NCBI RefSeq assembly: GCF_019974135.1
Contig: NZ_AP025017.1
Location: forward strand, 1,984,001 to 2,048,000
Reading direction: 5' to 3'
Source of the DNA: Actinomyces capricornis
GTDB lineage: Bacteria; Actinomycetota; Actinomycetes; Actinomycetales; Actinomycetaceae
DNA length: 64,000 bases
The position numbers and the translations under genes were made by a program. This document shows, piece after piece, positions 43,221 through 47,549 of this stretch (position 1 is its first letter; the number at the start of each line of letters is the position of its first letter). The notes beneath the pieces were generated by a model. The model did no database searches and was not told the DNA's origin. It was given only the letters and a program-made list of their open reading frames with translations.

Positions 43221-43301
43221 GGTGCCCTGAGGCCTTTCGGGGCACGGCAGCCGGCGCTCCGAGCCCGCTGATCCGGGCTGCCTCCGCTGCTGAATCGACG
43301 C

Positions 43302-43336
43302 CGTCGGCCGTCTCCCCGCGTGGGAGGCGGCCGACG
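43302..43336. terminator. Recurrent hairpin, copy 1 (after rplA)
   Basis: 15-bp stem (43302-43316 against 43322-43336, one T-G pair), loop CGCGT. The same 35-base sequence recurs at 44821-44855 and 46471-46505. It is followed at 43341-43383 by a second conserved stretch that reappears at 44862-44900 ahead of the second lipoprotein gene. Confidence 0.82.
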
Positions 43337-43517
43337 ATGTCTCTCACTACTCCCCGGGGCCTCCCCGTGGAATGGGGTGAGGCATGGGCTCCACACGCCT
43401 TTTCCCCGTGGGAACCTGCCCATTTCTCTGTTTCGGTGACCCTTCTACGGTGGTGCCAATTCCTCAAGCCGAGACGGCTGGCGAGGAGTGGCAATCGAGC
43501 GCGATGGAGGTTTCGTC

Positions 43518-44153
43518 ATGATGAGGATGACTGGGCGGGCTACTGGGCGAGTACTCGCTGCGATGAGTGCAGCCGGGCTGGCGCTGGGGCTGGCGGGATG
43601 CCAGCTCACGGGAGGAGGGGGCGATGATGCGGCCTCGCCACCTCCTGCCTCCGCGGCCAGCAGCGCAGGCGCGGCTACGAGCGGTGCTGGTGGCGAGGGC
43701 GGGGGAGCGCCGGGGAATCTCGGCTCCTATGAGACGACCGTTGAAGGGAATGCGGCCACCGTCACCCTCAACTCGGTCGATGGCACGGGGAGCACGATCA
43801 CCGTCACCTTCACCGTGACGAATAATGACCCGGACGATGACATGTGGGTCTATGAGACCTTCTCCGACGGTGATGACGCCGTTCCGCAAGCCGATGGCAA
43901 AGCCTCCCCCGGAGGGGATACGAACAATGCCGACGGCCTCACGCTGACCGAGCCCTCCTCCTCGACGGTCTACCGGGTGGCCTATGACGGTAACGGCGGC
44001 TGCCTGTGCTCCGGCCCCTTGACGGAGTATGTGAAGCCGGGGAACTCGCTGGTCCTGCAGGCGACCTTCGCCGGAGTTCCCGCCGAGGCCTCCACAGTCA
44101 CGGTCGCCATCCCCGGCGGGGGCACCTTCAGCAATGTGACGGTGGCCCGATGA
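43518..44153 (+). CDS. Secreted lipoprotein of unknown family, cassette copy 1
   Basis: 211 residues. A short leader ends in the lipobox LAGC (Cys 28). A Ser/Ala/Gly-rich linker (about 33-72) is followed by a beta-rich domain: VTLNSVDGTGSTITVTFTVT, the conserved STVYRVAYDGNGGCLCSG and STVTVAIPGGGTFSNVTVAR at the end. The layout resembles immunoglobulin-like domains of surface lipoproteins (DUF4352-like), but I do not recognise the family. GGAGG is 7 bases before the ATG at 43518. It overlaps the OmpA-domain gene by 4 bases (ATGA). Its paralogue is at 45017-45772; shared elements include NNADG/DNADG, YR.AYD..G.CLCS and STVTV.IP. Confidence 0.75.
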   Translation: MMRMTGRATGRVLAAMSAAGLALGLAGCQLTGGGGDDAASPPPASAASSAGAATSGAGGEGGGAPGNLGSYETTVEGNAATVTLNSVDGTGSTITVTFTVTNNDPDDDMWVYETFSDGDDAVPQADGKASPGGDTNNADGLTLTEPSSSTVYRVAYDGNGGCLCSGPLTEYVKPGNSLVLQATFAGVPAEASTVTVAIPGGGTFSNVTVAR

Positions 44154-44806
44154 GACCCGGGGTGCTTGGATCATGGGCCCGTGAGTGTCGGGGCCGTCGT
44201 AGGAGGGTGCGGTTCTCACTCCTGCCGGGTGTCGCGGCCCTCGCCGTGGGGGCGCTCCTTCCCGCGCCGGGCGTTGCGGTCCCCGCCTCCTCAACGCCTT
44301 CAGGCAGCGCTGCCGTCGAGAGGATCCCCCCTGAGAGCACCGGCCCGGCAGTACCCCGAACCGCGGACCTCATTGTGCGCGCGATGGAGCCCATCTCCAG
44401 GCAGGGCAGCGTCGATAGCGCGGTCACCTACTCCTCCGACGGCTCGACGACGACGGCCTCCCTGTCCGGGGACGTGAACTTCGACGTCGATTCAGCGACG
44501 CTCACCGATCGTGCCAAGCAGGTGCTGGATGAGATCGTCTCGGGGTGGGGCGGCACTCCGCCGGAGTCGGTGGCGGTGGTGGGGCATACGGATTCGGTGG
44601 CTGATGATGCGCATAATCAGACGCTGTCTGAGCAGCGGGCGCAGGCGGTGGCCGACTACCTGACCTCCAAGGTGCCCTCGTTGACGGTGGAGTCCTCGGG
44701 TAAGGGTGAGAGCGAGCCGGTGGCCAGTGAGACCAAGGAGGACGGCTCGGTCAGTGAGGAGGGCAGGGCTGCCAACCGCCGCGTGGAGATCACCTGGCAG
44801 CAGTAG
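44150..44806 (+). CDS. OmpA-domain (peptidoglycan-binding) protein, cassette copy 1
   Basis: 218 residues. A basic N-terminus and a hydrophobic segment (about 24-42, LPGVAALAVGALLPA) form a signal peptide; no lipobox. The C-terminal half (about 110-218) is an OmpA-like domain that binds diaminopimelate-type or related peptide stems: GDVNFDVDSATLTDRAKQVL, then GHTDSVADDAHNQTLSEQRA with the Asp and Arg positions of the motif. OmpA-domain proteins in cell-wall actinobacteria (for example ArfA) anchor to peptidoglycan. It is coupled to the lipoprotein by ATGA, which suggests a two-part wall assembly. Confidence 0.85.
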   Translation: MRPGVLGSWARECRGRRRRVRFSLLPGVAALAVGALLPAPGVAVPASSTPSGSAAVERIPPESTGPAVPRTADLIVRAMEPISRQGSVDSAVTYSSDGSTTTASLSGDVNFDVDSATLTDRAKQVLDEIVSGWGGTPPESVAVVGHTDSVADDAHNQTLSEQRAQAVADYLTSKVPSLTVESSGKGESEPVASETKEDGSVSEEGRAANRRVEITWQQ

Positions 44807-44810
44807 GAGG
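44501..44810. repeat. Homogenised OmpA-coding block, copy 1
   Basis: By base-by-base reading it differs from 46144-46453 at 5 of 310 positions, while the 5' half of the same genes is diverged. Codons such as GAT, CAT, AAT, GCT and ACG are more frequent than in the neighbouring genes. Confidence 0.85.
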
Positions 44811-44817
44811 CATCGTG

Positions 44818-44858
44818 CGCCGTCGGCCGTCTCCCCGCGTGGGAGGCGGCCGACGGCG
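44818..44858. terminator. Recurrent hairpin, copy 2 (after cassette 1)
   Basis: Same hairpin as at 43302-43336, here with an 18-bp stem, 12 bases after the first OmpA-gene stop. Followed by the same conserved leader stretch (44862-44900) before the second lipoprotein gene. Confidence 0.82.
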
Positions 44859-45016
44859 TCCCCATGCTCCCCGGGGCCTCCCCGTGGAATGGGGTGAGGC
44901 CCGGGCCCTGCACGTTCTTTCCCCGTGGGATCCTGCCCATATGCCCGCAATGGCGGCAGTTCTACGCTGGGAGCAGCGGCGGGCCGCGGGGGCCTGCTCG
45001 ATCATGGAGGTTCGCG

Positions 45017-45772
45017 ATGATCCGCACGACGATCCGCACTGGCAGGACCACGGAGAGGGCCGAGGGCGGTGGGGCAGCCCGGCGCTGCGCCTTGCCGCTG
45101 GGCGGACGACGCCGTCGGCTGCTGGCCGCCGTGAGCGCCGCCGCCCTGGCCACCGGCACGCTGGGCGCCTGCTCCTTCCTCGGAGGCGGCTCGGAGGAGT
45201 CCGCCGACGGCGGCTCGCAGCAGGCGTCGAATGCTCCCGCGGCTGTCACCTCCGTGCTGGAGTCCACCCGGGCCTCGGCTGGCTCCACCGAGCCGGTGCC
45301 GATCTCTACTGAGCTTCCGGTCCTCGCCTCGCGGGAGACCTCCCAGAATGGGCGATCATTGACGATGACGCTGAACTCGGTGACCGTCTCGGGCGGGGTG
45401 ACAACCGTCCTGTTCTCCGTGACCAATATGGGTTCTGAAGGCTCTGATCACTGGCAGGTGGGTAGCAACCTCGCCGACGATATCAGCGGTGTGCCCCTCA
45501 ACGCTGAGGGGGCTGTCAGTAACACCCCTGTACGGGACGATAATGCTGACGGCGTCACTATCATCGACACGGCCAACAGTCAGGTCTACCGGGCCGCCTA
45601 TGACACTGGGGGCAGCTGCCTGTGCTCCTCGGGGCTGTCGGGCGTATTCGTGGATCCTGGTCAGACAGTGGTCTTCCAGACCAGCTTCGCCGCCCTGCCC
45701 GAGGATGTGAGCACCGTGACGGTGACGATCCCGCTGGCCGGCTCCTTCGACAACGTGTCGGTGACGCGATGA
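45017..45772 (+). CDS. Secreted lipoprotein of unknown family, cassette copy 2
   Basis: 251 residues, paralogue of 43518-44153. The leader has a long basic region and a lipobox LGAC (Cys 52). After a Ser/Ala linker (about 58-100) the beta-rich domain has the family motif VYRAAYDTGGSCLCSSG and ends STVTVTIPLAGSFDNVSVTR. The start has the same ATGGAGGTT ribosome site as copy 1, with ATG 7 bases later. It overlaps the second OmpA gene (ATGA). The two lipoproteins are clearly related but well diverged, unlike the near-identical OmpA domains. Confidence 0.78.
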   Translation: MIRTTIRTGRTTERAEGGGAARRCALPLGGRRRRLLAAVSAAALATGTLGACSFLGGGSEESADGGSQQASNAPAAVTSVLESTRASAGSTEPVPISTELPVLASRETSQNGRSLTMTLNSVTVSGGVTTVLFSVTNMGSEGSDHWQVGSNLADDISGVPLNAEGAVSNTPVRDDNADGVTIIDTANSQVYRAAYDTGGSCLCSSGLSGVFVDPGQTVVFQTSFAALPEDVSTVTVTIPLAGSFDNVSVTR

Positions 45773-46449
45773 GTGCCCCGGGAATCCGCAGAGCACATCG
45801 CGGCCTCCTCAGGGGCGCGGGCACCCTGGCGGCCCTGGGGGTCGTCCTGAGTGGGATGGTGGGCCCGGCCTGGGCCGATGACGAGTCCTCCGAGGACCCC
45901 AAGGGCGGCGTGGCCACGAGGACCTCAGGATCGGTCACCCACCCGCCGGCCGTTATCGGCGAGGCGATCCCGCCGGCCTCCGTCCGGCCCGATATCGCAC
46001 CGGTGAGGCAGATCGTCATGCCGAGGATGGACCTCGTCCTGCGCGTGGGCGCCTCCGATGGCGCGGTCACCAAGGACTCCGACGGCACGAAGACCAGGGC
46101 GACCCTGTCGGGCGACGTCAACTTCGAGACCGACTCGGCCACCCTCACCGATCGTGCCAAGCAGGTGCTGGATGAGATCGTCTCGGGGTGGGGCGCCACT
46201 CCGCCGGAGTCGGTGGCGGTGGTGGGGCATACGGATTCGGTGGCTGATGATGCGCATAATCAGACGCTGTCTGAGCAGCGGGCTCAGGCGGTGGCCGACT
46301 ATCTGACCTCCAAGGTGCCCTCGTTGACGGTGGAGTCCTCGGGTAGGGGTGAGAGTGAGCCGGTGGCCAGTGAGACCAAGGAGGACGGCTCGGTCAGTGA
46401 GGAGGGCAGGGCTGCCAACCGCCGCGTGGAGATCACCTGGCAGCAGTAG
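45769..46449 (+). CDS. OmpA-domain (peptidoglycan-binding) protein, cassette copy 2
   Basis: 226 residues. A signal peptide (about 1-36, with GTLAALGVVLSGMVGPAWA) is followed by an Asp/Glu/Ser-rich linker and the OmpA-like domain from about residue 118. The domain is almost the same as in copy 1; only G/A and K/R differences were noted (WGATP against WGGTP, SSGRG against SSGKG). The N-terminal 110 residues are unrelated apart from general composition. Coupled to the lipoprotein by ATGA. Confidence 0.85.
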   Translation: MSAPGIRRAHRGLLRGAGTLAALGVVLSGMVGPAWADDESSEDPKGGVATRTSGSVTHPPAVIGEAIPPASVRPDIAPVRQIVMPRMDLVLRVGASDGAVTKDSDGTKTRATLSGDVNFETDSATLTDRAKQVLDEIVSGWGATPPESVAVVGHTDSVADDAHNQTLSEQRAQAVADYLTSKVPSLTVESSGRGESEPVASETKEDGSVSEEGRAANRRVEITWQQ

Positions 46450-46453
46450 GAGG
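46144..46453. repeat. Homogenised OmpA-coding block, copy 2
   Basis: Partner of 44501-44810 with 5 differences in 310 bases, including the stop codon and 7 bases of 3' flank. Offset is 1643 bases. Confidence 0.85.
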
Positions 46454-46470
46454 TCCCTCGTTTCGCGAGC

Positions 46471-46505
46471 CGTCGGCCGTCTCCCCGCGTGGGAGGCGGC
46501 CGACG
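46471..46505. terminator. Recurrent hairpin, copy 3 (after cassette 2)
   Basis: Same 35-base hairpin as at 43302 and 44821. It lies between the second OmpA gene and the convergent prepilin peptidase gene, so it can stop transcripts from both sides. Confidence 0.8.
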
Positions 46506-46520
46506 GCATGCCCGGCCCGC

Positions 46521-47195
46521 TCAACTGATGGCCAAGGCCCAGACCAGCAGGACTCCCGCAATGAGGTAGGGACCCAACGCCACGGAGTCCTTGAGGCGCG
46601 CCCTCCTGAACACGATGAAGGCGAGGGCGGCCAGTCCGCCGATGAAAGCCCCCGCCGTCAGCGCCCACAAGGGGGCCAGGAAGGAATAGCCGCCCAGCCA
46701 GAGCCCCACCACACCCATGAGCTTGACATCCCCGTAGCCCATGCCGGATCTGATGCGGGAGAGCAGGTAGGTGATGGCGTACGCCAGGGCTGTGGCCCCC
46801 AGCCAGGACAATGCGGTGGGGGCATGGGGGCTGGTCGCCAACCGCACCGCGCCGCTGAGGATGGCGAGCAGCGCAGCGATCAAGAGCAGGGCGTCGGGCA
46901 GTCGATGGCATACCGCATCCACGGCACCGGCCTGGCAGAGAATCGCAGCGATCGGTGCGGCCAGAAGCCCGTCCATCGGCGCATCGCAGGCAGCTGCCCA
47001 CCCGATGACGAGGGCTGAGACGACGAGCGCCAGCCCGGTCTGCCATGGTGGGCTCAGGAGCCAGGTGTAGCGGGGCGGCGGATCCTCGACGGCCCGGATG
47101 TAGACGCGGCACCATGATGACCCACTCCTGCCCACCAGGACGGCGCACAGGGCAGTGACGAGCACTCCGGCAATGCCCGTGAGGATCCCGCTCAT
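46521..47195 (-). CDS. A24 family (prepilin/leader) peptidase
   Basis: Membrane aspartyl protease of 224 residues that cleaves type IV-type prepilin leaders. Catalytic Asp sites are in AVDAVCHRLPD and in GMGYGDVKLMG (GxGD type); about seven helices are predicted. The N-terminal N-methyltransferase domain of PilD-type enzymes is absent, as in TadV/FlaK-like or short actinobacterial enzymes. No pilin, tad or flp gene is near. The ATG at 47195 has GGCGGAG upstream. It converges on the OmpA cassette and is divergent from rplJ. Confidence 0.86.
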   Translation of the reverse strand: MSGILTGIAGVLVTALCAVLVGRSGSSWCRVYIRAVEDPPPRYTWLLSPPWQTGLALVVSALVIGWAAACDAPMDGLLAAPIAAILCQAGAVDAVCHRLPDALLLIAALLAILSGAVRLATSPHAPTALSWLGATALAYAITYLLSRIRSGMGYGDVKLMGVVGLWLGGYSFLAPLWALTAGAFIGGLAALAFIVFRRARLKDSVALGPYLIAGVLLVWALAIS

Positions 47196-47549
47196 CCCCG
47201 GGACTCCGCCGACGGCCCCGAAGCCGGGGACGCATGGTGGGTGAGGAGGCGCCAGTGGCGCACACGGGGGCCGGTGGCGGTGTTCCGCGGTGCGCTCGCC
47301 CTGCTCATGGGCGCTGCCAGTGCGATGGCATGATCGGTGCGCGGCAGGGCCCGCCCGTGCGGGCAGGTGGGGGCGGTGATCGACATGCTCCAAGCCTGGC
47401 AGAGCAAGGGGCCCCGTGCGGGCCCGATGCCGCGTGATCCGGAGGTCGGGAGCTCCATGCTTCGACCCATGCGGGAACCAGGCCATCCGCCCCGCGTGAC
47501 CAGCCCCACGGCCTCGGGCCTTGCGGCAGCGGCGCCGTCGGCCTGTACA
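47196..47549. other. Intergenic region before the L10 leader
   Basis: No supported gene. It must contain the minus-strand promoter of the peptidase gene and the plus-strand promoter of rplJL. TTGCGG (47521) and TACAGT (47546) could be boxes but with a long 19-base spacer. Confidence 0.4.

What the first reader, a model, noticed from the sequence alone, without database searches (positions are those of the whole stretch)
43302..46505. Tandemly duplicated lipoprotein-OmpA cassette inside the ribosomal operon, with homogenised 3' halves
Two copies of [hairpin, leader stretch, lipoprotein gene, OmpA-domain gene, hairpin] follow rplA. The OmpA 3' coding block is 305/310 identical between copies by direct reading, while lipoproteins and OmpA N-termini are well diverged. 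That is the mark of gene conversion or selection on the wall-binding domain. The block also uses more A/T-ending codons (GAT, CAT, AAT) than its surroundings. A coupled lipoprotein plus peptidoglycan-binding partner in a monoderm suggests a two-part surface structure. Its job is unknown; this is the strongest candidate for an undescribed system in the window.
Basis: partly seen in the sequence, partly recalled or inferred. Interest (0 to 1): 0.72.

Follow-up and report, generated by a model that had tools for sequence, protein, structure and literature searches.

The report
Two-part membrane-to-wall tether genes
This Actinomyces genome carries two side-by-side copies of a lipoprotein-plus-OmpA gene pair that recurs in many actinobacteria; the pair is predicted to form a two-piece link between cell membrane and cell wall, and the near-identical ends of the two copies were most likely made alike by gene conversion.

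Summary
In detail: two [hairpin, leader, lipoprotein gene, OmpA gene] cassettes lie between rplA and rplJ, and 305 of 310 bases at the OmpA 3' ends are identical while the rest is diverged. Synonymous divergence falls from about 1.0 outside to 0.04 inside the block, below the 0.23 between the copy-A orthologues of A. bowdenii, so recent gene conversion fits and protein-level selection alone does not. The copies are not a young duplication: trees place them in two old lineages, found together in 2 of 49 Actinomyces genomes. The pair itself is widespread: 23 of 49 genomes carry both genes, adjacent in all 23, and a split pair or a single-chain fusion occurs in other actinobacterial families. The lipoprotein domain matches no Pfam family, mostly carries a CxC motif and is predicted to fold like MPT63/YxkC. 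Single-chain relatives lie near strong rcpC genes of Tad (Flp) pilus loci (17 of 20 within 20 kb); the same domain ends some Ser/Thr kinases. The split pair itself does not track the Tad locus. Best reading: a split, Pal-like membrane-to-peptidoglycan tether of a monoderm. Complex formation and wall binding are untested.

The parts
43300..43336 (+). Hairpin 1, downstream of rplA
   Evidence: 3 exact copies genome-wide; folds at -38.2 kcal/mol, 0 of 200 shuffles as low; no T run follows
43337..43517 (+). Leader of cassette A with the element TTTCCCCGTGGGAACCTGCCCAT at 43401-43423
   Evidence: the element is found only twice in the genome within 3 mismatches, once per cassette; core CCCCGTGGG in 10 of 13 aligned leaders, 0 of 9 others
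43518..44153 (+). lipA: predicted lipoprotein (lipobox LAGC), beta-sandwich domain, CxC motif
   Evidence: lipobox is my reading of the sequence
44150..44806 (+). ompA: predicted secreted OmpA-domain protein, start overlaps lipA stop (ATGA)
   Evidence: PF00691, 63.7 bits against cut-off 27.2; overlap
44501..44810 (+). Homogenised block, copy A
   Evidence: 305 of 310 identical to copy B; no site of full paralogue type up to the stop codon
44819..44855 (+). Hairpin 2, between the cassettes
44856..45016 (+). Leader of cassette B with the element at 44918-44940
   Evidence: more like the leader of A. bowdenii cassette A than of its B (94% against 67% in one 60-column window), not significant by permutation
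45017..45772 (+). lipB: predicted lipoprotein (lipobox LGAC), beta-sandwich domain, CxC motif
   Evidence: model
45769..46449 (+). ompB: predicted secreted OmpA-domain protein, start overlaps lipB stop (ATGA)
   Evidence: PF00691, 63.6 bits against cut-off 27.2
46144..46453 (+). Homogenised block, copy B
46469..46505 (+). Hairpin 3, after cassette B (no such hairpin after cassette B of A. bowdenii)
46524..47240 (-). Neighbour: prepilin peptidase (A24) gene frame, the only A24 match in this genome; start not fixed
   Evidence: PF01478, 39.6 bits; one match in G000

Best explanation
The finding is two old, tandem copies of an overlapping two-gene unit, a predicted membrane lipoprotein with a predicted MPT63/YxkC-like beta-sandwich and a predicted secreted OmpA-domain protein, which likely work together as a two-piece tether between membrane and wall and whose OmpA 3' blocks were most likely made alike by recent gene conversion. 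Shown: gene order, ATGA overlap, conservation as a pair, natural fusion of the two domains in one chain, and the divergence pattern of the block. Predicted: lipid anchoring (lipobox), secretion (signal peptide), the beta-sandwich fold, wall binding (OmpA domain with its invariant Asp and Arg). Inferred: the lipoprotein domain holds the OmpA protein, so that a membrane-anchored and a wall-anchored half meet. The split pair would then do with two proteins what single-chain lip-OmpA-lip lipoproteins do with one; those sit in Tad (Flp) pilus loci of Actinomyces, where a wall anchor would be useful.
Confidence: 0.6

Rival explanations
1. The module is an accessory of the Tad (Flp) pilus: it anchors the pilus base or guides the fibre through the wall, and the split pair is a relic or a helper of other Tad-like systems.
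For: 17 of 20 strong RcpC genes have an OmpA-family gene within 20 kb, 13 of them at 8.4-8.9 kb; about 4-9% would be expected for 3-7 such genes at random. The single-chain gene lies between a response regulator and tadG in A. bowdenii. The split pair lies within 2.5 kb of the prepilin peptidase gene in seven genomes that lack this RcpC, the window's included.
Against: The split pair and the Tad locus do not co-occur: 12 of 23 pair genomes have it, P 0.11. The window genome lacks this locus yet keeps two pairs. A survey of Gram-positive type IV pili lists the known tad genes without OmpA and does not mention OmpA in its main text (passages of PMC3244431).
Confidence: 0.25
2. The lipoprotein domain is a sensor or ligand binder, not a tether; the OmpA partner only places it near the wall.
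For: The same domain is the C-terminal part of Ser/Thr kinases in 3 of 29 class-wide loci. CxC motif kept in 27 of 31 lip proteins.
Against: A stand-alone lipoprotein has no signalling part, and most loci returned pair the domain with OmpA (25 of 29).
Confidence: 0.2
3. The identical block reflects strong selection on the wall-binding domain, or a young duplication, not conversion.
For: The OmpA domain is the best-kept part in relatives too.
Against: Synonymous sites are also nearly identical (3 synonymous differences in 75 sites); lip and OmpA N-terminal trees split the copies at the base of two old lineages.
Confidence: 0.03
4. The near-identity is an assembly fault between two similar stretches 1.6 kb apart.
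For: Near-identical repeats in tandem; a public MAG protein of this locus (P0016) reads on past its normal end in another frame.
Against: Five mismatches remain inside the coding block, and flanks differ on both sides. Another strain has a partly homogenised block: left 44 of 45 residues alike, right 53 of 59.
Confidence: 0.05

Closest known systems
Pal (peptidoglycan-associated lipoprotein) of the Tol-Pal system
   Same: A lipid-anchored part and an OmpA-type wall-binding domain
   Different: Pal is one protein and sits in an outer membrane (recalled); here lipid and OmpA domain are on two proteins and the cell has one membrane (recalled). Pal_lipo scores 41.5 bits against a cut-off of 125.35.
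ArfA/OmpATb (Rv0899) of Mycobacterium tuberculosis
   Same: Actinobacterial membrane-linked protein with an OmpA-type domain; sequence match to its C-terminal domain, E 6e-11 for 2lbt
   Different: Rv0899 has an N-terminal membrane anchor and a central BON domain (passage of PMC6151718); no BON match in ompA or ompB
MPT63, YxkC, YcdA, YjhA (secreted or lipid-anchored beta-sandwich proteins)
   Different: Sequence identity 9-15%, no shared Pfam family found, no OmpA partner known to me
OmpA-type anchors of machines (TssL/TagL of type VI secretion, MotB of flagella)
   Different: Here the machine, if any, would be a Tad pilus, and only the single-chain relatives lie in its locus

Membership tests
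OmpA family (PF00691) | Match to the family profile over its cut-off | tested here: met
   63.7 and 63.6 bits against 27.2
OmpA family (PF00691) | Conserved Asp and Arg of the peptidoglycan-binding site | tested here: met
   D148 and R163 invariant in 15 sequences; their role is recalled
OmpA family (PF00691) | Peptidoglycan binding | not testable with these tools
   needs protein
Pal | Match to Pal_lipo (TIGR02802) over its cut-off | tested here: not met
   41.5 (ompA) and 41.6 (ompB) bits against 125.35
Pal | Lipobox on the OmpA-domain protein itself | tested here: not met
   none seen in the ompA and ompB translations (read by eye)
ArfA/OmpATb | BON domain before the OmpA domain | tested here: not met
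   no BON match at E 1 in either protein
MPT63/YxkC-like beta-sandwich fold | Shared fold | tested here: inconclusive
Tad pilus component | Single-chain relative lies in the Tad locus | tested here: met
   OmpA-family gene within 20 kb of RcpC in 17 of 20; position in L126
Tad pilus component | Split pair co-occurs with the Tad locus | tested here: not met
   12 of 23 pair genomes have the locus, P 0.11; absent from the window genome

The most novel reading that the evidence does not exclude
Actinobacteria have their own envelope-tether system, built from a CxC beta-sandwich domain and an OmpA domain, that comes as a split pair, as a single chain inside Tad pilus loci, and as the outer part of Ser/Thr kinases: one domain family that both holds surface machines to the wall and reports the state of the wall.
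Probability: 0.3. Interest if true: 0.75.

Novelty: new variant of a known kind. Interest (0 to 1): 0.55.

Why it matters
OmpA-type wall anchors are textbook parts of envelopes with two membranes; what they do in cells with one membrane is little described. A pair conserved over many actinobacterial families, with an unnamed domain that also occurs in Tad loci and kinases, gives a concrete, testable handle on how such cells fix surface structures to the wall. The window also gives a clear example of gene conversion limited to one domain.

Tried and rejected
Young duplication: rejected by trees of lip and of the OmpA N-terminal part. Protein-level selection as the only cause: rejected by synonymous sites. 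A block with its own codon bias: GC3 does not set it apart from its own cassettes. One direction of conversion: not upheld. Of 46 sites in the block where the A. bowdenii copies differ and the window copies agree, 24 follow bowdenii A, 18 bowdenii B and 4 neither; the left part looks B-like, the right part A-like. Conversion in the leader: suggestive but its segment score of 11 does not exceed the permutation maximum of 12. A leader element shared by all pairs: not upheld; 0 of 9 leaders from other lineages have the core. Hairpins as ordinary terminators: no T run follows; left open. Split pair as a Tad gene: not supported by co-occurrence. Order search with the full lipoprotein profile: 113 of 198 genomes matched at E 0.001, but of the 29 loci that I looked at, 16 matched only the N-terminal part of the profile (up to position 121 of 236) and were dropped, and one (L105) is a fragment; weaker matches beyond those loci were not looked at. 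In the OmpA trees two of 26 rows (G082, G098) were dropped because my split motif missed them. Papers: ten searches. Four found no paper; in the others I saw listings with titles and abstract starts, none about this pair. Of two papers I saw passages only (PMC3244431; PMC6151718).
Full report
What is there. The window is part of a 3.17-Mb single-contig genome; the genus Actinomyces follows from the named relatives and from A. bowdenii. Between rplA (ends 43220) and rplJ (starts 47728; both names are my reading) lie two cassettes. Each has a hairpin, a leader of 160-180 bases, a lipoprotein gene and an OmpA-domain gene; a third hairpin follows. In both cassettes the OmpA start codon overlaps the lipoprotein stop codon (ATGA). 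The hairpin occurs three times in the genome, all here. A 23-base leader element occurs twice within three mismatches, both here. Its core CCCCGTGGG is in 10 of 13 aligned leaders (window, A. bowdenii and the oris/naeslundii set; my count), but in 0 of 9 leaders from other lineages, so it is not a feature of all pairs.

The homogenised block. The four-way alignment with A. bowdenii, which has the same two cassettes, shows paralogue-type sites through lip and the 5' part of ompA and none of the full type from 44501 to the stop codon. Nei-Gojobori dS between the window copies is 1.15 (lip), 0.91 (ompA 5' part) and 0.041 (block); between the A. bowdenii copies 1.08, 1.06 and 0.51; between species in the block 0.23 for copy A and 0.66 for copy B. 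The permutation test gives 0 of 20,000 for the window and 1,815 of 20,000 for A. bowdenii. Three synonymous T changes (44602, 44605, 44608) are shared with bowdenii copy A and found in 0, 1 and 0 of 8 outgroups, which points to A-to-B transfer in the right part; in the left part 44540-44566 the window copies mostly share states with bowdenii B. A second strain, labelled A. bowdenii in public records, has its left half alike between copies (44 of 45 residues) and its right half less so (53 of 59, against 58 of 59 in the window) (that its two proteins share one contig is inferred from the equal contig length, 8983). So the block was likely made by at least two events, the last in the window's lineage.

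Age of the copies. In the lip tree (25 rows) copy A groups with the oris/naeslundii set (11 rows, 100/100); copy B stays outside. The tree of the OmpA N-terminal part agrees (11 rows, 100/97). In the tree of the C-terminal part both window copies sit on zero-length branches at one unresolved node, and bowdenii B joins the other lineage (8 rows, 89/94) (24 of 26 rows in the OmpA trees). Long branches are present, so finer branching is not relied on.

The pair elsewhere. In 49 Actinomyces genomes 23 have the short OmpA protein (E 1e-43 or better), and the same 23 have the lipoprotein next to it; a 24th lip match lies in a 601-aa single-chain protein (G048). Two of the 23 look broken: G040 (stops in both genes) and G012 (lipoprotein in pieces). 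In the ten loci that I laid out, the pair lies within about 4 kb of rplA in A. bowdenii, A. naeslundii, A. johnsonii, A. oris P6N, A. israelii and A. massiliensis, and elsewhere in A. timonensis, A. denticolens, Actinobaculum oral taxon 183 and Pengzhenrongella frigida. The order search examined 198 genomes; of 29 loci returned and new, 2 are own or same genus, 8 are pairs and 2 fusions from other families, 1 is a fragment and 16 match only the N-terminal part. The class search examined 246 genomes with a domain-only profile; 52 had a match at E 1e-5 (the own one included), and of the 29 other loci handed back 17 are split pairs, 8 a fusion plus a second lip gene, 3 kinases and 1 has no OmpA within the stretch held.

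Coupling. Start and stop overlap in 25 of 25 pairs looked at from the genus and its near kin, ATGA in 22 and GTGA in 3 (the broken pairs and G021 were not looked at). Of 25 more distant pairs (two counted before) 13 show NTGA at the lip stop, 12 do not.

Single-chain relatives. I collected 28 long OmpA proteins with a C-terminal part over 110 residues; 27 have a lipobox-like motif. The lip profile matches their N- and C-terminal domains at 96-98% probability; reversed and OmpA controls give 0.1-0.3%. The 574-aa member is modelled with strands-only domains on both sides of the OmpA domain (pLDDT 79, pTM 0.78). L108, from another family, shows the same order by sequence.

Tad pilus link. I took the 20 strong RcpC matches (E below 1e-15) of 51 listed; 17 have an OmpA-family gene within 20 kb, 13 at 8.4-8.9 kb; two lie on contigs without a listed one and one is 44 kb away. 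The OmpA list holds the 150 matches printed, which was cut by the tool. By chance 4-9% would be expected. The same 20 genomes have the matching TadA (71-100% identity). In A. bowdenii the order after cassette B is: unknown gene, rcpC, tadZ-like, tadE, tadA, two T2SSF genes, histidine kinase, response regulator, single-chain lip-OmpA-lip, tadG-like, prepilin peptidase. The window genome has three TadA-like ATPases at 38-42% identity but not this locus, no RcpC over the cut-off, and one prepilin peptidase gene, beside cassette B. Because the Tad locus follows the pair in A. bowdenii and in A. oris P6N, loss in the window's lineage is the simpler reading. A survey of Gram-positive type IV pili lists 13 known tad genes, none an OmpA gene; I saw passages only (PMC3244431).

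Mechanism. The lipoprotein would sit in the membrane by its lipid and display a beta-sandwich; the OmpA protein would be secreted, bind the wall and dock on the lipoprotein. Overlapping genes would give similar amounts. Natural fusions of the same two domains are the best sign that they work together. What the tether carries is open: the wall itself, a pilus base, or a signal, the last suggested by kinases that carry the domain.

Novelty. The OmpA half is a known family; public names are 'OmpA family protein' and 'hypothetical protein' for the two halves. Ten paper searches listed nothing on the pair. I rate it a new variant of a known kind.

Noticed in passing
L143, L146, L159: Ser/Thr kinases (PF00069) whose C-terminal end is the lip-type domain with the CxC motif; L143 holds two such frames in a row.
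   Followed up: partly
L126:10871-12499: Single-chain lip-OmpA-lip lipoprotein gene inside a Tad pilus locus, between a response regulator and a tadG-like gene.
   Followed up: yes
Leaders in L007, L009, L010, L041, L049, L050: Arrays of degenerate repeats like CTCCCCGTGTACTCCCCAT ahead of the pair in the oris/naeslundii set, perhaps binding sites.
   Followed up: no
L105, L081, L090/L094: Broken copies: a lip fragment in G007, stops in the pair of G040, a lipoprotein in pieces in G012.
   Followed up: no
L003 (G000:C1:1679131): Third OmpA protein of this genome, an apparent lipoprotein with repeats of the kind HGDGSGTYSDG before the OmpA domain.
   Followed up: no
L126:1754-2548: A 264-aa protein without any Pfam match precedes rcpC and recurs in 6 of the other 8 loci compared.
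   Followed up: no
46524-47240 (-): The only prepilin peptidase gene of this genome lies beside cassette B although the genome's TadA-like ATPases lie elsewhere.
   Followed up: partly
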